From Rhizobium redzepovicii (lineage in GTDB: Bacteria; Pseudomonadota; Alphaproteobacteria; Rhizobiales; Rhizobiaceae): a stretch of 64,000 bases of DNA. How positions within the stretch are numbered: position 1 is the stretch's first letter; each line of letters starts with the position of its first letter. Positions 1-6,900 of this stretch are shown here, piece by piece. The DNA is taken from assembly GCF_019793435.1 (NCBI RefSeq), contig NZ_JAILYH010000011.1, positions 62,001 through 126,000 on the forward strand. The letters are read 5' to 3'. The position numbers and the translations under genes were made by a program. The notes below the pieces were generated by a model. The model saw only the letters and a list, made by a program, of their open reading frames with translations. It had not been told where the DNA came from and did not search any database.

Positions 1-60
1 ATAGCTGGTGTAGCGGGGTAGTCGGGCGTCGCCGTATTTGTCGACAAGGGCGTCGGACAT
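1..60 (-). CDS. hemN: HemN, oxygen-independent coproporphyrinogen III oxidase (5' end only)
   Basis: The minus strand opens with ATG at 60-58 and reads MSDALVDKYGDARLPRYTSY before leaving the window. The KYGDARLPRYTSY stretch is the usual N-terminus of rhizobial HemN, a radical-SAM enzyme that makes protoporphyrinogen precursor for haem under low oxygen. Only 20 codons are visible, so the catalytic CxxxCxxC cluster cannot be checked. A FixK/FNR-like box lies about 60 bases upstream, as expected for a microaerobically induced hemN. Confidence 0.8.
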   Translation of the reverse strand, partial: MSDALVDKYGDARLPRYTSY

Positions 61-117
61 TTTCGCATCCTCAAAAAAGCGTGTGATGCGTTATGCGCCT
101 TGGCGAGCGCCTACTCG

Positions 118-131
118 TTGTCATGGATCAA
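118..131. promoter_or_regulatory. FixK/FNR-type anaerobox
   Basis: TTGTC-ATGG-ATCAA is a dyad with one departure from the FixK/FnrN consensus TTGA(T/C)-N4-(G/A)TCAA. It sits between hemN (leftward) and the DUF2249/MIP18 genes (rightward) and could serve either side. The rest of 61-307 shows no convincing gene. Confidence 0.5.
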
Positions 132-307
132 TCACGCCGCGAACAATTTGCCGAAACGCCCAGCCCGCGCTGTGCCAACCGTATGCGATAGAGCGCTAAA
201 ATCTTGGGAACTCGCACTCGCCAACTCTCCTGCGAACGTGGATCCCAATACAAAGAGGCACGCATTTCAACAGCCGGCGTTCTTCTTCGCCGCCAACAAG
301 AAAGGTC

Positions 308-409
308 ATGCCAATGGTCCAGCTTCGTGAGCTTGACGTAGGACAGATCCTGCGAAATGGCGGGATGCCCTTCCAAACGGGACGCCGCAGATGCCGGCAA
401 CTGATGTGA
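308..409 (+). pseudogene. Cut-off DUF2249 gene
   Basis: An AAGAAAGG ribosome site precedes ATG at 308. The first 22 or so residues (LRELDVGQILRNGG-PF) match the start of DUF2249 proteins, which usually run to about 75-90 residues. Here the reading continues for only about ten arginine-rich residues and stops at 407-409, inside the next gene. This looks like a deletion that joined the head of DUF2249 to the head of the MIP18 gene. DUF2249 commonly neighbours MIP18 and hemN genes in N-oxide respiration clusters, which supports the reading. Confidence 0.5.
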
Positions 410-726
410 CGAAGGAGCAAGTTTTCGCCGCGTTGCGGGAGATTGAGGGTCCGGAAGTCGGAACGAACCTTGTCGACCTTGGGCTGATCTACGAGGTCGA
501 TACGACAGAAGCCGGCGTCGTCAAGATCGAGATGACCACGACTACCCGCTTCTGTCCGGCGTCAGCCTTCATCATCGAGGCAGTCAAGACCCGCGTTGGG
601 ACGATCGCCGGCGTCGGCGAAGTAGTCATCGATCTAGTCTACGAGCCTCCATGGTCGGCCGAAATGGCGACGCTATTTTCCTTCAAGCAACCAAGCGTAA
701 AAATTACGGTCGGACGCAAGCCATGA
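391..726 (+). CDS. MIP18 family (DUF59) metal-sulfur cluster assembly factor
   Basis: A 111-residue protein with the compact MIP18/DUF59 fold. The motif EVGTNLVDLGLIYEV (residues 22-36) and the conserved cysteine in RFCPAS (Cys55) are the family hallmarks seen in PaaD and SufT, which help mature Fe-S clusters on target proteins in the cytosol. The start at 391 is the only ATG after the in-frame stop at 334-336; no strong ribosome site precedes it, and it lies inside the DUF2249 remnant, so translation may once have been coupled to that gene. The stop overlaps the next start as ATGA. Neighbours suggest a role with low-oxygen or N-oxide enzymes, which is inference. Confidence 0.8.
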   Translation: MPATDVTKEQVFAALREIEGPEVGTNLVDLGLIYEVDTTEAGVVKIEMTTTTRFCPASAFIIEAVKTRVGTIAGVGEVVIDLVYEPPWSAEMATLFSFKQPSVKITVGRKP

Positions 727-1010
727 ACATCGATCTCAAAGGCCTGGTGCTTGACGCAACCGACCTGGCCGGACGTTTCGGATTGTCGCCCGACGCGCTT
801 CGTAGCCAAATGCGGCGAGGTCTGGTTCGCGGAGTGGTCGAGGCCGGCGTTGGCGAAGACGCCGGGAGGACTCGCTTTTCCGTGCGCTTCGGAAATCGGG
901 TCTGGATTGCGGTCGTTGGCATTGGCGGTGAGAGTCTGAGCGAGGAAATGAAATTCGTCGCCTCCGCTGTGCCTCGGGTTTCAAGCGTTTCGTGCAAAAC
1001 GGGCGGATAA
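723..1010 (+). CDS. Small conserved protein, DUF6522-like
   Basis: A 95-residue protein whose ATG overlaps the MIP18 stop by four bases (ATGA), indicating translational coupling. The N-terminal half has the pattern LDATDLAGRFGLSPDALRSQMRRG, followed by a GEDAGRTRFSVRFGNRVW segment. This resembles a small family I know as DUF6522, found beside denitrification-type genes; the family name is from memory and was not verified. It has no signal peptide, membrane segment or cysteine cluster, and no function can be assigned. Confidence 0.6.
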   Translation: MNIDLKGLVLDATDLAGRFGLSPDALRSQMRRGLVRGVVEAGVGEDAGRTRFSVRFGNRVWIAVVGIGGESLSEEMKFVASAVPRVSSVSCKTGG

Positions 1011-1181
1011 TCACAGCTAAATAACGATCAAGTCCAGCGCCTGCTGCCAGATCCATATTCCACACGTACTTCGTCGCGGGAGGCATGGCAGCAATAGAGG
1101 ATGCCTGGTTCATCCTCGGTTTCGTTCCAAGGTCGACAGGGTGTTCGGCAAGGTGCCGGAGGCCGGCGGACCCTCACTCGT

Positions 1182-1400
1182 CTATCGGGTATCTTCGAGC
1201 ATGAGTGCCGTAATCAGATACCCAACGCCCAGCATGCTGGCGAACAGGTACACGAACAAACCCTGCGCGACGTAATAATCCGTCGGACTCGCTGAGTACA
1301 TTCCGGCAAACCTGTTGTTCCAAACAACGAACCCGACCGCACACCCCAGCCCAGCACCGGCTGCGAGGCGGGTGAGCATGAATGAAATCAACCGAGGCAT
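1182..1400 (-). CDS. Small two-helix membrane protein, unknown function
   Basis: A 72-residue protein with two hydrophobic segments, roughly residues 9-27 (RLAAGAGLGCAVGFVVW) and 43-66 (YYVAQGLFVYLFASMLGVGYLI). It is separated from the histidine kinase remnant, which lies upstream on the same strand, by about 75 bases. I do not recognise the family. The hydrophobic pattern and sensible start make it likely to be real, but it sits among decayed genes and may be a relic. Confidence 0.45.
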   Translation of the reverse strand: MPRLISFMLTRLAAGAGLGCAVGFVVWNNRFAGMYSASPTDYYVAQGLFVYLFASMLGVGYLITALMLEDTR

Positions 1401-1476
1401 CTCGCGTCTCCATGGTCTCCGCGCTCAACGTATGAGCGCTGATCAAGTTCCGGTGGCAAAAGGCGCCTTCGATCAA

Positions 1477-1967
1477 TTGGGGTGGCGTGTGCCGGACGGC
1501 GTTCTTGATCAAATTGCGGAGCGCGTCTCTCAACAAGGCTGGGGCACCCCGCAGCAGAGCGGACTCGACCTGCGAAGAGAACTCCAGTGAATGGTTGTTC
1601 TCATAGACCATGGAGCGAGTTGAGCCACGATAGACGAGCCTAGCTCGATGAGGTCGATGTCTTCGAAAGTGCTATGGTCAAAACCGTCCAACCGCGCGAG
1701 AGCGGTGAGCGGACCGACGAAGCGAACGAGATCGTCGAGATTGGCCTCCGCCTGCCTGGCGCGGGGATGGTCTATACGGCCGAGTTCCAGCTTCAAAACC
1801 GCAAGCGGCGTGCAGATCTCATGTGCAATCCCGGATGTTAGGATCTTCTGTGATTTCATTAGCTCTCCGACCCGCTCGAAGGCGCGGTTGACCGCGATCA
1901 CAACATGGGCGACACATTTTGAAGCGAAGCGCCCGGACTCGTGACCGTCAAGTACCACGAGGAACAC
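1477..1967 (-). pseudogene. Sensor histidine kinase remnant, frameshifted and cut at both ends
   Basis: The first frame reads RAFERVGELMKSQKILTSG followed by IAHEICTPLAVLK, a HisKA dimerisation helix with the phosphorylatable histidine (H-box, HEICTPL instead of HELRTPL). At about 1608-1612 one base is missing: the reading leaves frame after VAQLAP and resumes one frame over as MVYENNHSLEF. That frame then carries the N-box of the ATPase domain (DALRNLIKNAVRHTP). Nothing recognisable follows, so the G-boxes are absent, as is the sensor region upstream. It cannot encode a working kinase. Confidence 0.75.
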
Positions 1968-2040
1968 TCTTTAGCCGTTTCCCCTTGATATTCGATCGGT
2001 ACAATTCTATGTAGTTAGTGCTTCGCAAGAAGACATGGTG

Positions 2041-2335
2041 CTAAACCTTTTGTGCAATAGATGTGCAGGACGCGGCTTCGACGCCGCCGCCTCCACCAAC
2101 AACCGCCGGCGCGACGGCTGTTGATGGGGGCGACATGGGATCGACTGGCATTGAAAGACAAAAGCTGTGCTCGGCATGATACCACCGTTATCGGGTCAAA
2201 ATAGTAGTTGCAAACGACAACTATGCGGAAGCTCGTCTCGCTGCTTAATCGCAGTGTGACACTTCAAATCAAGCCCTTGGGGTTCGCACCTTAAGGCGGG
2301 GTTCGGAGGTACCTGGCAACAGAAACCTCCACCTT
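2041..2335 (+). ncRNA. ssrA: tmRNA, circularly permuted two-piece form
   Basis: The gene order is permuted as in Alphaproteobacteria: the acceptor piece comes first, with T-loop sequence TTCGAC at about 2078-2083 and the 3' end CGCCTCCACCA at 2088-2098. A short spacer able to fold follows (2099-2125), then the 5' end of the coding piece, GGGGGCG, at 2126. GGGGGCG pairs with CGCCTCC to form the acceptor stem. The tag frame at 2210-2248 encodes ANDNYAEARLAA and a TAA stop, the classical alphaproteobacterial degradation tag. A hairpin GGAGGT/ACCTCC (2305-2310, 2325-2330) lies near the 3' end. Outer limits are approximate. tmRNA rescues stalled ribosomes; its tagged products go to ClpXP, helped by SspB encoded just downstream. 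Confidence 0.93.
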
Positions 2336-2469
2336 TCCCCTCTCTGTCCTGCTGCCTTTGATTGAATGACGCTATGGTGATGTGGACTAAAATTAGTCAA
2401 CGAGTAGCTATCTTTTTTCCTATTTTCAGACACTTATCTTGAACTAACAATCGTCATGTTCTCATAAGC

Positions 2470-2635
2470 GTTGGTACCCGGCGCCTCCACCAAAAACCGG
2501 CGGCCGCGAAGGCCGGCTTTTGATGGGGGCGAAACAGGATCGACAAGGGTGCGTGACACTTCAATCAAAGTCCTAGTGGTTCGCACCTCTAGGCGGGGTC
2601 CGAAGGCACGTGGCAACAGAAGCCTTCACCTTCTC
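2470..2635 (+). pseudogene. Second tmRNA-like locus without tag or T-arm
   Basis: CGCCTCCACCA (2482-2492), a hairpin spacer, and GGGGGCGAAACAGGATCGAC (from 2525) repeat the acceptor end, spacer and 5' end of ssrA. GTGACACTTCA and TGGCAACAGA further on match the downstream part of ssrA. About 110 bases that hold the tag frame in ssrA (2146-2255) are replaced by eight bases, and no TTCGA T-loop precedes the CCA. The acceptor pairing is intact. The spacer hairpin and the terminal hairpin (GAAGGC/GCCTTC against GGAGGT/ACCTCC in ssrA) are both preserved with changed sequence. It cannot tag proteins; it is either a decayed old copy or a separate RNA. Confidence 0.75.
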
Positions 2636-2758
2636 CCTGCCGCCGAAATCATGTATGCTGCTGAAAAACGTGACTCGGCTCCGGTCTTTCCCAAGGCGCC
2701 CGGACGTGGCATATAACCTTGTGAAAAGACTTCCGAACCGACGAAAGACAGGAAAAGC

Positions 2759-3274
2759 ATGGGGCAGGATCATATCCGCTACGACATTCTGGCACAGGAT
2801 GCACTTCGCGGCGTCATCCGCAAGGTTTTGGCGGAAGTCGGAGCGACGGGCCGCCTGCCCGGCGACCATCACTTCTTCATCACCTTCCTCACAGGTGCTG
2901 CCGGCGTACGCATCTCCCAGCACCTGAAATCGAAATATCCCGAGCAGATGACCATCGTCATCCAGCATCAGTTTTGGGATCTGAAAATTACCGAGTCGCA
3001 TTTCGAGATCGGCCTTTCCTTCTCCGACGTCCCGGAAAAGTTGGTCATCCCGTTCAATGCGATCCGCGGCTTTTACGATCCCTCCGTCAACTTCGAGCTC
3101 GAATTCGACGTGCCGCTCGCCGATGGCGAGGAATTACCGTCCGGTGAAATCACCGCGTATCCCGTCGACGCCGCAGCAAAGCCCGATGAGGCCGCGGGCG
3201 CAAAACCCGGCGATGGCGAAGAGAAGAAGCCGGGTTCGGTCGTCTCGCTCGACTCCTTCCGCAAGAAGCAGTGA
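2759..3274 (+). CDS. sspB: SspB-family adaptor for ClpXP (SspB-alpha)
   Basis: A 171-residue protein matching the alphaproteobacterial SspB group, which binds ssrA-tagged substrates and delivers them to the ClpXP protease. Residues 1 to about 120 form the substrate-binding domain (RLPGDHHFFITFLTG near 40-54; FNAIRGFYDPS near 98-108). Residues 125-155 are an acidic, lysine/alanine-rich flexible linker. The last residues, VVSLDSFRKK, are the ClpX-docking tail. A GACAGGAAAAG ribosome site precedes the ATG. Its place just after ssrA joins tag and adaptor in one neighbourhood. A strong terminator follows directly. Confidence 0.9.
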   Translation: MGQDHIRYDILAQDALRGVIRKVLAEVGATGRLPGDHHFFITFLTGAAGVRISQHLKSKYPEQMTIVIQHQFWDLKITESHFEIGLSFSDVPEKLVIPFNAIRGFYDPSVNFELEFDVPLADGEELPSGEITAYPVDAAAKPDEAAGAKPGDGEEKKPGSVVSLDSFRKKQ

Positions 3275-3280
3275 TTTGAA

Positions 3281-3302
3281 GGGAGGCCAAGCCTCCCTTT
3301 TT
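3281..3302 (+). terminator. Rho-independent terminator after sspB
   Basis: GGGAGGC-CAA-GCCTCCC followed by TTTTTC, starting seven bases after the sspB stop. Confidence 0.9.
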
Positions 3303-3323
3303 CATAAGGATTAAGGGGCCCGC

Positions 3324-3518
3324 ATGAGCGCCGAAATCGTCAATCTCCGCCAATTCCGCAAGAAGCAGGCCCGCTCAGAAAAGGAGGCGCAGGCCGAGCA
3401 GAACCGCATTTCCTTCGGCCGCACCAAGGCTGAGAAGCAACTCACCCGCAGCATGAACGAGAAGGCCGACAAGACCCATCGCGACGGCCGGCTCGAGACT
3501 GATGACGACGGCGCGTGA
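3324..3518 (+). CDS. DUF4169 family protein
   Basis: A 64-residue, highly charged protein: MSAEIVNLRQFRKKQARSEK, then FGRTKAEKQ. Both segments are typical of DUF4169, a short family of unknown function in Rhizobiales. It lacks membrane segments and is likely helical. The start follows the sspB terminator, so it probably has its own promoter or depends on readthrough. The same order (sspB, DUF4169, ribbon-helix-helix protein) is common in related genomes as far as I recall. Confidence 0.8.
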   Translation: MSAEIVNLRQFRKKQARSEKEAQAEQNRISFGRTKAEKQLTRSMNEKADKTHRDGRLETDDDGA

Positions 3519-3924: not shown

Positions 3925-6900
3925 TCATTGCGCCTGAACGCCCGGCACCTGGTCAAAATTGAGCGAACCGGGCTGCGGCCCGCCGCGCCGGGCCGCTTCC
4001 GCGGCGGCCCTCGCCTGTGCATCCGCCTCGTCTTTGGCCTCCGCCGCGCGTGCAGCCTCCGCTTCCGCGAGAGCCTTCTGCGCGGCCGCAGCCTGCGCCA
4101 ATGCGCGCAGCCGCTCTTCCTCCGCCTGCCGTTGCTGCTCGATTTCGGCCGCCCTGACGCGCTGAGCGTCATTGAAGCGGTAGAGCGCCGCCTCGCGGCG
4201 CAGCCGCTGCTTTTCGAGCACGATCGCCTGCAACCGCTCGACGCGCCGGCGCTCGCGCTCGAAGGCGCGCAGCGACAGGTAGCTGGTGATATCGGTCACA
4301 TCCATCGTCTTGCCGGGCGACGGCAGCATGCCGGAAAAATTCAGCCTGAGCGACGGCTCGGCGCCGGACAGCGCTTCCGTGCCAGGATTGAGACCGACGC
4401 CTAGCGTCGCGCTGATCCGTTCCTCCGGCAGCGCGATCTGCGCATCGGCGGTGATGCGGGCGAGATCGTTGGCGACGGTGACATTCTGCACGCGCAGTGT
4501 CCCGTCGGTGATATTGAAGGGGATGCCGAGCGGCGGCAGCTTCGCCTCTCCGTTGCTGAGCAGCGTCTCGATAATCGGATGCACCTTGCCGGCATTAATC
4601 TGCTCCTGCATCGTATCGGTCGCGGCAAGCAGCGGCGGAAGGATGGCGAGGTTCAGTCCGCGTATGCTGGTCTCGCCGAGCCTAAGTTCGCCCGAACCGT
4701 TCAGCGAACTGGCAATCTCGCCAATCGTCTTGCCCGAAGCCTCCATCGACAGCGACAATCCGAATTTGCCGTTGGCGATCGGCGCGCCGTCGCGCAGCCA
4801 GACGACGCCGGCAACATCGGAATCGGCAAGCGCAAGCTTCGTCTGCAGGAAACCGGTGCCGTCGGCATTGGTGAACAGCAGATTGCCGGAGAGCTTTCCG
4901 CCATCCCAGTTGCCGGCCATGTCGTTAAGCTGCAACTCATCGCCCTTGTAGGCAACGTTGCTGGTAAAGTCGGTGACCGCCGTCTCCGGCAGACCGGGCC
5001 AGAACTGCTTGGCGGTCAGCTTCACGTTGACGTCGAGATCCTTGAAGACGGGCAGCCCGAGCGGCGCCGTCGTCAGCGCGCCGTTGGCGGGATCAACGAT
5101 CTGGCCGAACACTGCCTCGCCAAGCCAGCCGGCATCCGCCTTGGAGAGCGTCAAGTCGCCGGTCGCGGTCGTCTTCGCAGCCCTCCGGTCGAAGCTCAGC
5201 GCGCCTGAAAACTCGTTGTCGGCCGCATGCCCCTTGAGATCGGAAAAGACGATCTTGTCGCTGTCGACGCGGGCATTGACCTGCAGGCCGAACGGCAGCC
5301 CGGCTCCCGTCTGCGGCAGGGCGATCCCGTTCATGATGAGATAGGGGTCGATATCGGCGCTGTCGAGCGAAAGCGCGATCTTGCCGTTCATGAAAGTTTC
5401 CGGCCGGACATCGACTTTGCCATTGGCTGTAAACGAGGTCCGGTCGGTCGCAAAGGTTAGCGCCGCATCGGCGGGATCGTTACCTGATGCCTTCACCTTC
5501 AGCGTTAGGCGGCCGTTGGCGCCGACATCGACCGGCAGCGGATCGAGCCCGGCCTGGCCGAACAGGATCGACGGCACGGCATTTTCGAGCGTCGCCTCAA
5601 GGCTCGTCGTACCGTTGCCGGTCAGCGCCAGCAGGTCGGACATGCGGTAATCGAGATTGACGCGGCTGCCGTTCGCCACACCGGCAAGCGTCACCGTCAG
5701 CGCGTTGCCTTCGTCGCCGCCGAGCGTCAGCGCGCCGCGCAGCGCCGTGTTGCCGTACCAGCCGGCATTGCGCACCAGCCGGTCGAGCACCGGGTGATGC
5801 GGCAGGTGCTCGCGCAGCATGGTGAAAAAGCCACCGGGATCGGCCGATTTGAAGGTGATCTCGCCGGCGCCCTTGTAATCGAGCAGCGAGCCTTCCGCCC
5901 TGCCCGTCGCCGTCAGTTCAGCGCCTGCAATATTCTTGATCGACAGCCGGTCGACGGCAAGCTCTCCGTCGGCGATCGTGAAGGTGGTCTCGACATTCTC
6001 GGCATCGACGCCGAAGGCAGTGAACTTATCGGCCTTCAGCTGGGCGGCGATCTTGTGGTCGAGCACGTTGTCGCCGGCATCCTGGCCGGTCATCAGCCCG
6101 CTCAGCGCCTGCAGCGCATCGAGATCGAGCGTGTCGCCATTCAGGGCCACCGATAGGGTCGGCGTCTGGCCGGAGATCGCCTGTCGCTCCAGCCTGCCCT
6201 TCAGCGTCGCCGGCCCCATAGCGATCTCAAGATTTTCGAAACGCTGCAATTCGGGTGTCAGGCTGACATTGGCGGAAAAGCCCGCCTGCCGCAATTGGCG
6301 GATGGCCGGATCGACCGAGCCGGCAAGCCAGGAGGCAAGCCCGGTCGGCTGGCTGGACGCCACTACGATCTGGCCATTGAACGAGGCTTCGCCCTGCAGC
6401 AGGAGTTTGCCTTTGCCTTCCACCTGTGTCCGCCCCGGCAGCGTACCGGTGGCGCTGTCGATCATCCAGCCGGTACCGGCCGGTTCGAGCTCCAACTGCA
6501 CGTCGCGCAGCGTCGTATCGCCGGCGACGATCGCCGGCAGCTTGACACTTGCCTTGCCCGGCACCTGCGGGATCGGCACCTGTGCGATGACATCAATTAG
6601 CGAATTCAGCCGCTGGCGCGCCGAAACCGCCGGATCGCGGGTCGTTTTGCCGGCCTCGCCCTGATTGCCGATGCGGTTGACGTCGATCTGCTGCCCGTCG
6701 GCGGTCAACAGGAATTCCGGCGCATTGCCCGTATCCAGCGTCGCCTCCCCGGTTATGACGTAGGGATCGTCCGTCGGTCCGATCTCCATCCGATATTCGG
6801 GAATGCGGATGCGTTCATTGGTGAGCTCGAAGCGGCCCTTGACGCGCGGCGGCTGCTCCTTCTTGTTGGCGGGCTTGGCGCTGTTGCCGCTTTCGATCGC

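What the first reader, a model, noticed from the sequence alone, without database searches (positions are those of the whole stretch)
2041..2635. Tandem tmRNA loci: a complete permuted ssrA and a tag-less sister next to sspB
The second locus keeps the CCA-end/5'-end pairing, a folding spacer and the 3' hairpin, but lacks the tag frame (about 110 bases gone) and the T-loop. Its spacer and 3' hairpins differ in sequence from ssrA while still pairing (GAAGGC/GCCTTC against GGAGGT/ACCTCC; two compensating pairs), which argues against free decay. It may be a relic left by gene replacement or an element that used ssrA as target, or a processed RNA with a role apart from tagging, for example binding SmpB or the tmRNA processing enzymes. 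I have not seen such a tag-less partner described.
Basis: partly seen in the sequence, partly recalled or inferred. Interest (0 to 1): 0.78.

Follow-up and report, generated by a model that had tools for sequence, protein, structure and literature searches.

The report
Island carrying spare for broken gene
The 'tag-less' second RNA gene is the decaying stump of the bacterium's original tmRNA gene, cut in two by a mobile DNA island that brought its own complete spare copy, and similar islands did the same at the same spot in several related soil bacteria.

Summary
Both loci are real, but they are not a gene and its tag-less partner. Locus B (2474-2630) is the right half of the resident Rhizobium ssrA, cut at the T-loop; a further 103-bp loss removed its tag. 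Its left half lies 33.5 kb upstream on the same contig. Between the halves sits a genomic island, and the complete ssrA (A) is island DNA, of a clade ('F') with a TTCGA T-loop instead of the resident GGCGGTA. I found F in 13 Rhizobiaceae genomes. In 10 of 13 it directly follows all or part of a recombination module (three tyrosine-recombinase-like proteins plus a small one); in 11 of 13 a resident right half, cut at the same point, lies downstream (78 kb away in one). Ten of these eleven keep the tag; only this genome lost it, and here no recombinases were found and both halves carry changes at positions invariant in intact genes. Best reading: an SE/GInt-like island destroys the permuted ssrA on integration and survives by carrying a full spare without the attachment site, the tmRNA counterpart of tRNA-dependent lysogeny. 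Expression, excision and rescue are untested.

The parts
1..2472 (.). Right-hand 2.5 kb of a 33.5-kb genomic island (whole-genome coordinates C13:30990-64472) that lies between the two halves of the resident ssrA
   Evidence: left resident half C13:30778-30989, right half from C13:64473
391..726 (+). Island gene: iron-sulfur cluster assembly (FeS_assembly_P) protein
   Evidence: Pfam PF01883, E 5e-16
1981..2333 (+). Island-borne complete permuted ssrA (locus A, 'F-type')
   Evidence: RF01849 251 bits; ARAGORN; F clade of 13
2077..2082 (+). F-type T-loop TTCGAC, in place of the resident GGCGGTA where related islands have cut
2096..2098 (+). CCA end of the acceptor piece of A
   Evidence: sequence, aligned to RF01849
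2126..2132 (+). GGGGGCG, 5' acceptor strand of the coding piece of A
   Evidence: sequence, RF01849 alignment
2210..2248 (+). Tag reading frame ANDNYAEARLAA plus stop in A
   Evidence: ARAGORN
2334..2473 (.). Right end of the island, with GGACTAA/GAACTAA motifs shared with right ends of some related islands (putative recombinase sites)
   Evidence: junctions compared by eye; site function is inference
2473..2479 (.). Right junction (attR): resident ssrA sequence resumes at GTACCC inside the T-loop
2474..2551 (+). Locus B, first part: resident ssrA from T-loop through CCA (2490-2492), spacer hairpin and 5' acceptor strand GGGGGCG (2525-2531)
   Evidence: 97.5% identical to L038 2609-2687
2551..2553 (+). 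Deletion junction: 103 bases of resident ssrA (pairing region and tag) missing
   Evidence: L038 2688-2790 without counterpart
2553..2630 (+). Locus B, second part: resident ssrA 3' region with 3' hairpin
   Evidence: collinear with L038 from 2791; RF01849 alignment
2759..3274 (+). sspB, the resident right-hand neighbour of ssrA

Best explanation
Locus B is what remains of the resident ssrA after a genomic island integrated into its T-loop. The alpha-proteobacterial ssrA is circularly permuted, so the T-loop lies near the start of the gene: integration separates the promoter and the first part of the acceptor piece from CCA end, spacer and coding piece, and a short reconstructed 3' end, as used by islands in ordinary tRNA genes, cannot repair it. 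The island therefore carries a whole ssrA. In related islands it sits directly behind a four-gene recombination module (three tyrosine-recombinase-like proteins and a small protein, like GInt/SE modules). Its T-loop (TTCGA) lacks the GGCGGTA of the cut site, so it should be immune to the same integrase. Shown: the two halves, the common breakpoint, the F clade, the link to recombination genes in relatives, intact displaced halves elsewhere and decay here. Inferred: that the island ssrA is expressed and restores trans-translation, that the module catalyses integration, that the T-loop change gives immunity, and that this island lost its recombinases and became fixed, after which B decayed and lost its tag.
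For: Left half of resident ssrA at G000:C13:30778-30989, same strand, ending in the T-loop. All 8 left junctions read show GGACCCGGGGGCG then NTA(T/G). That left-junction pattern occurs in 6 of 394 family genomes, reversed-pattern control none, and all 6 carry a TTCGA-type ssrA, five F and one F2. Resident sequence resumes at GTACCC in 12 right junctions of 11 genomes. F 5' halves form one clade, 13 of 13, support 0.99, and are 84-95% identical to A, although the recombination proteins beside them mostly share only 22-49% identity. All or part of the module lies directly upstream in 10 of 13. In the genus, of 148 genomes 143 have a best match of 288-308 bits (taken as resident type), 4 one of 243-251 bits, 1 none. 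Resident T-arm identical in every R-type copy read. Decay: G000 has 3 of 40 changes in the left half, and 1 change plus 61 missing of 162 invariant positions in B; the other 7 left halves have 0 of 40, the other 11 right halves 0-2 changes, one with a 16-position gap.
Against: No recombination module was detected in this island; its assignment rests on junctions, end sequences and the F ssrA. Two of 13 F genomes (G049, G525) have a single F or chimeric ssrA and no remnant; in N. vignae no module was seen in the 1.15 kb held. In G493 module and F ssrA lie at the left end and the remnant 78 kb away, a different layout. F-like ('F2') copies look like the ordinary ssrA in one genus (g60: all 5 genomes sampled; thyA-ssrA-sspB order in the one examined, L096), so the TTCGA lineage is not only element-borne. 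Right halves elsewhere are as conserved as intact genes, so their loss of function is assumed from the missing half. G135 and G246 have their halves on different contigs. Nothing here shows transcription, excision or rescue.
Confidence: 0.87

Rival explanations
1. B is a functional tag-less regulatory RNA, for example binding SmpB or processing enzymes.
For: The region folds better than shuffles (z -2.5); CCA/5' pairing and 3' hairpin are kept; a promoter-like match at 2366-2393 lies upstream of B (2 such sites found in 1900-2760, shuffles mean 0.5, sd 0.6).
Against: All folding parts are inherited from resident ssrA; none of the ten other genomes with a displaced right half has lost the tag; B and its sister half changed at positions invariant in intact genes; it lacks promoter half and T-arm.
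Confidence: 0.04
2. A and B arose by tandem duplication of one gene followed by decay of B.
For: Tandem order and general similarity.
Against: A falls in the F clade with genes of other genera, B is close to the resident gene of a congener; the rest of B's gene is 33.5 kb away.
Confidence: 0.02
3. The halves and the F ssrA are real, but the F ssrA was acquired for its own benefit and its link to the recombination module is hitch-hiking, not rescue.
For: F-like ssrA is the ordinary gene in one genus; loss of ssrA is tolerated in some alpha-proteobacteria (recalled).
Against: A spare gene of the same kind as the broken target stands next to recombination genes in 10 of 13 cases, with proteins that mostly share only 22-49% identity; the cut-site motif is absent from all 13 F copies.
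Confidence: 0.1
4. The displaced right halves stay conserved elsewhere because they still make a working coding piece that pairs in trans with the island's acceptor piece, the tmRNA being two-piece anyway.
For: 0-2 of 162 invariant positions changed in the ten genomes other than G000, with a 16-position gap in one of them.
Against: Seven of eight left halves are just as intact, which fits recent insertion or frequent excision; promoter lost; acceptor and coding pairing partners differ between F and R (alignments).
Confidence: 0.03

Closest known systems
tRNA-dependent lysogeny (Guerrero-Bustamante and Hatfull 2024, PMC10865867; abstract and passages seen)
   Same: Integration with a short core into an essential RNA gene without rebuilding it; the element carries a complete gene of the same kind.
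   Different: There phages, one integrase and a tRNA, shown by experiment; here genomic islands, a multi-recombinase module and a tmRNA, inferred from genomes.
GInt genomic islands with three integrases, ginABCD (Bardaji et al. 2017, PMC5385486; abstract, the first two of six text parts covering most of the Results, and Discussion read)
   Same: Three tyrosine-recombinase-like proteins plus a small protein in one operon, varied cargo, a specific site, short imperfect repeats; distantly related modules can share one site.
   Different: Its authors think insertion probably does not fully inactivate the target; the main text has no use of 'tmRNA' (supplementary tables not seen). Here the protein without the first catalytic arginine seems to be second, not third.
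Strand-biased circularizing integrative elements, SE (PMC10214605; passages seen)
   Same: Gene order ordinary recombinase, recombinase-like protein, large recombinase, small protein seems to match.
[quoted passage not shown] start of abstract seen in listings; Williams 2003 recalled, not held)
   Same: tmRNA gene as integration site; displaced fragment marks the island end.
   Different: Those islands restore the target gene with their own sequence at the junction; here the target stays broken at both junctions and a separate, whole, diverged gene is carried.
TLD-only tmRNA of phage DS6A (PMC4131195, passages seen)
   Same: tmRNA-derived sequence without a tag.
   Different: Keeps the tRNA-like domain; B has lost part of it and is read here as a relic.

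Membership tests
Functional permuted tmRNA (locus A) | Scores above the Rfam alpha_tmRNA cut-off over the full model | tested here: met
   251 bits against 50, positions 1-355
Functional permuted tmRNA (locus A) | Tag frame with stop, CCA, paired acceptor strands | tested here: met
   ANDNYAEARLAA; CCTCCACCA and GGGGGCG
Functional permuted tmRNA (locus B) | Above cut-off, T-arm and tag present | tested here: not met
   46.5 bits, T-arm cut, tag missing
GInt / SE-type island (the related islands) | Three tyrosine-recombinase-like genes plus a small gene in a row | tested here: met
   G132, G135, G323, G493 complete; G246 cut by the contig end; in the other five only part was seen or is left
GInt / SE-type island (the related islands) | Homology to GinABCD or IntA-Tfp-IntB-Srap | not testable with these tools
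   Reference sequences not at hand; Pfam puts T1 of G132 and G493 in Phage_integrase, T3 of G493 there weakly below cut-off, T2 and T4 in no informative family; NCBIfam hits of T1 are below its cut-offs
GInt | Order ginA-ginB-ginC, the protein lacking the first arginine being third | tested here: inconclusive
   In five-sequence alignments T2 keeps R437, H461, Y470 without a clear first arginine, T3 keeps R285, R392, H416, Y425: an SE-like order, but the residue assignment is mine by eye
GInt / SE-type island (this island, G000) | Recombination module present | tested here: not met
   none found in C13:30990-64472; only ends and F ssrA
GInt / SE-type island | Excises as a circle and restores the empty site | not tested
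   needs PCR or long reads
tRNA-dependent-lysogeny logic | Target RNA gene not rebuilt at either junction | tested here: met
   in the seven F genomes with both halves found, both end in the T-loop
tRNA-dependent-lysogeny logic | Element carries a complete gene of the same kind | tested here: met
   F ssrA lies between the resident halves on one contig in G000, G132, G323, G484, G493; in G135 and G246 the halves are on different contigs
tRNA-dependent-lysogeny logic | Spare gene needed for survival after integration | not testable with these tools
   needs genetics

The most novel reading that the evidence does not exclude
Rhizobiaceae carry a family of multi-recombinase islands with an obligate 'break and replace' life style: they destroy a permuted ssrA that cannot be rebuilt from a short attachment repeat and bring a full, target-free spare, which makes the cell dependent on the island (addiction without a toxin). 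The tag class of the spare matched the host's own tag class in 10 of 10 readable pairs, which suggests exchange of the tag half with each host. The strategy may be general: beside this ssrA, thyA is itself broken in the coding sequence next to a foreign thyA and another recombinase gene cluster.
Probability: 0.55. Interest if true: 0.78.

Novelty: new variant of a known kind. Interest (0 to 1): 0.62.

Why it matters
It explains a puzzling tandem tmRNA locus as the footprint of a recurrent event and warns annotators that the intact ssrA of such genomes is foreign. It extends the logic of tRNA-dependent lysogeny from phage tRNAs to a tmRNA and to islands, and shows how gene permutation changes what an integrating element must carry. 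It makes 'dependence without a toxin' testable in tractable soil bacteria, and the two-class T-loop is a simple sequence test for such islands.

Tried and rejected
Tandem duplication and functional tag-less RNA were rejected on the split resident gene and on changes at invariant positions. A search with the small recombination protein (T4 of G132) in 394 family genomes found only G493, missing G323, G246 and G484, which other searches showed to have a T4: the protein diverges too fast for it. The F pattern found nothing in viral contigs. Relatives of T3 and T2 of G132 in plasmids: one weak partial hit and none. The order-level F search matched 4 of 397 genomes, all of the own family and already seen. 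Promoter and terminator scans of 1900-2760 gave 2 promoter-like sites (shuffles 0.5) and 3 terminator-like sites (shuffles 1.0), too few to argue from. I asked whether displaced right halves are kept by selection; left halves are about equally intact, so no such claim is made.

Full report
OBSERVATION. The window lies in a Rhizobium-type genome (G000, contig C13:62001-126000). Locus A at 1981-2333 is a complete permuted ssrA (251 bits; tag ANDNYAEARLAA). Locus B matches the same Rfam model at 46.5 bits, below the cut-off of 50, with the middle missing.

WHAT B IS. BLAST against loci of congeners shows that B is not a copy of A. Window 2473-2551 is 97.5% identical to the ssrA of genome G068 (L038:2609-2687); after 103 unmatched bases in the relative, window 2553-3518 follows at 92.7% identity through sspB. 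B is thus the resident ssrA in its native place, cut at the T-loop on the left and lacking 103 bases inside. The rest of that gene should exist elsewhere if an insertion cut it. A search with the relative's 5' half found it at C13:30778-30989, same strand, 90% identical, ending in the T-loop. It lies next to a (truncated) thyA; in the uninterrupted relative thyA, ssrA and sspB are neighbours. The two halves are 33.5 kb apart; A lies between them, near the right half.

THE SAME EVENT ELSEWHERE. In the genus, 147 of 148 genomes have an ssrA match; 143 have a best match of 288-308 bits and four (G000, G049, G132, G135) of 243-251 bits, with a different 5' half. G132 and G135 also have a truncated second copy downstream, with the tag intact, and resident left halves 147.7 kb upstream (G132) or on another contig (G135). 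A search with the 5' half of A over 394 family genomes (68 with a match at E <= 1e-8, many only over the CCA region) gave close matches (86-93%) in five more genomes, and an exact pattern over a GTDB collection gave ten named contigs. In all, 13 genomes carry this 'F' type. Their 5' halves form one clade (13 of 13, support 0.99); the resident genes put in (28 of 28, a sample) form another (support 0.86).

JUNCTIONS. All eight left junctions that I read show GGACCCGGGGGCG followed by NTA and T or G; twelve right junctions in eleven genomes resume at GTACCCGG (found by matching those strings, so the bases just beside them are the test). The pattern of a left junction was sought in 394 family genomes: 6 have it (G000, G246, G276, G323, G484, G493), the reversed-pattern control none. 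All six carry a TTCGA-type ssrA: five F and one F2 (G276). Distances between the halves, are 33.5 kb (G000), 147.7 kb (G132), 33.0 kb (G323), 16.6 kb (G484) and 85.3 kb (G493); in G135 and G246 the halves are on different contigs. Island ends beside the junctions carry similar motifs (GACTAA and its inverse, or GTCGAC forms) in inverted order; G000's ends resemble those of G246, G323 and G135 (by eye).

RECOMBINATION GENES. Directly upstream of F ssrA are up to four genes: T1 (about 470 aa, Pfam Phage_integrase in the two scanned), T2 (about 630 aa, no family in the two scanned), T3 (about 620 aa, weak Phage_integrase below cut-off in one of two) and T4 (about 160-170 aa, no informative family). 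All or part of this module was found in 10 of 13 F genomes: G132, G135, G323, G246 and G493, Root1212, N. tomejilense, Shinella PQ7 and G049, and G484, where a transposon-like gene pair stands in place of most of the module. In G049 and Shinella only T4 was seen. Not found in G000 or G525, nor in N. vignae, where only about 1.15 kb upstream was held. Between islands the proteins mostly share 22-49% identity; close pairs are Root1212/G135 (68-74%) and G049/G246 (84%). The F 5' halves are 84-95% identical to A. Conserved columns include R285, R392, H416 and Y425 in T3, and R437, H461 and Y470 but no clear first arginine in T2 (catalytic assignment is mine). This resembles GInt (PMC5385486) and SE modules (PMC10214605); the order seems to fit SE better.

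DECAY TEST. From 42 distinct intact resident genes, 162 positions of the right part are invariant. The eleven displaced right halves of other genomes (two in N. vignae) have 0-2 changes, like intact genes left out one at a time (0-3); Root1212 also has a 16-position gap. B has one change and lacks 61. For the left part, 40 positions are invariant in 47 genes (left out one at a time: 0-1 changes): seven of eight displaced left halves have 0 changes, G000 has 3. The control genes were required to have an intact T-arm and come largely from best-scoring loci, so the control leans towards well-conserved genes. The likely history: elsewhere insertions are recent or still excise; in G000 the island lost its recombinases and the resident halves are decaying. 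Tag loss is part of this, not a new function.

WHY A WHOLE GENE. In the permuted gene the T-loop lies before the CCA end and the coding piece, so an integration there cannot be repaired by a short duplicated 3' end. The resident T-arm is identical in every R-type copy read, and none of the F copies has it. Hence the reading: the island breaks ssrA and replaces it with a copy it cannot break again. Rescue is inference; the nearest proven case is tRNA-dependent lysogeny (PMC10865867; abstract and passages seen).

MOSAICS. The tag class of F matched the host's resident tag class in 10 of 10 genomes where both could be read, five of each class; exact tag identity in 8 of 10; three of the ten (G484, N. 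vignae, N. tomejilense) are nearly identical in this part, so they are not independent. G049 has a single chimera (F 5' part, resident-like 3' part) with a T4 remnant before it; N. vignae has two truncated copies, the first with the 3' end of F. Both fit recombination between the tandem copies.

CARGO. This island carries genes for microaerobic respiration and cytochrome c assembly: matches to CcmF, FixG, an E1-E2 ATPase, cytochrome oxidase subunit I, a PAS kinase, a cupredoxin and a radical SAM protein (ten proteins scanned, one without a match; any gene names beyond Pfam are recalled). Ten proteins of the G132 and G135 islands were scanned for defence families: IetA-like ATPases and a UG17 reverse transcriptase are the strongest.

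LITERATURE. Nine searches of an open-access library showed, in their listings, no description of islands that carry a full spare ssrA. Subscription papers, among them Williams 2003 on traffic at the tmRNA gene, were not held, so earlier notice cannot be excluded.

Noticed in passing
G000:C13:29129-30772 (outside the window; L056:17129-18772) and L090:154-1793: thyA next to the left junction is itself broken (207 or 213 aa) beside a foreign thyA (312-313 aa); in G000 two large proteins (1095, 663 aa), a small one and a tyrosine recombinase (546 aa) follow. In G000 the lost 3' part of native thyA is on contig C50:91339-91608 (97% identity). This looks like a second break-and-replace insertion.
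   Followed up: partly
L098 (Neorhizobium vignae), reverse-complement coordinates 1576-1854 and 1966-2244: Two tandem truncated resident ssrA copies after the F ssrA, the first with the 3' end of F: product of unequal exchange.
   Followed up: partly
L035:2834-3193 (R. mesosinicum, G049): Single chimeric ssrA, F-type 5' part and resident-like 3' part, with a T4 gene in broken frame upstream.
   Followed up: partly
L084 (G470): ssrA with resident T-arm whose 3' part is 97-100% identical to that of six F copies, a possible reverse chimera.
   Followed up: no
L063, L064, L071, L065-L069: A second TTCGA-type lineage (F2): among sampled g73 genomes matched only in G492 and G520; in G276 with a resident left half on another contig; in all five g60 genomes sampled.
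   Followed up: partly
L054:13210-14643, L052:4353-6329: UG17 defence-type reverse transcriptase at the left end of the G135 island and an IetA-like AAA ATPase at the left end of the G132 island.
   Followed up: no
L089, about 6060-6640: Long simple tandem repeats (GCCTTGAGCCCGT and GTGCC) between the left junction and the recombination genes in G493.
   Followed up: no
genomes G004, G111: Each has a second RF01849 match that was not listed and not examined.
   Followed up: no
window 1530-1967 (-): Short reading frame just upstream of A, where other islands have the recombination genes; looks like a histidine-kinase fragment (by eye).
   Followed up: no
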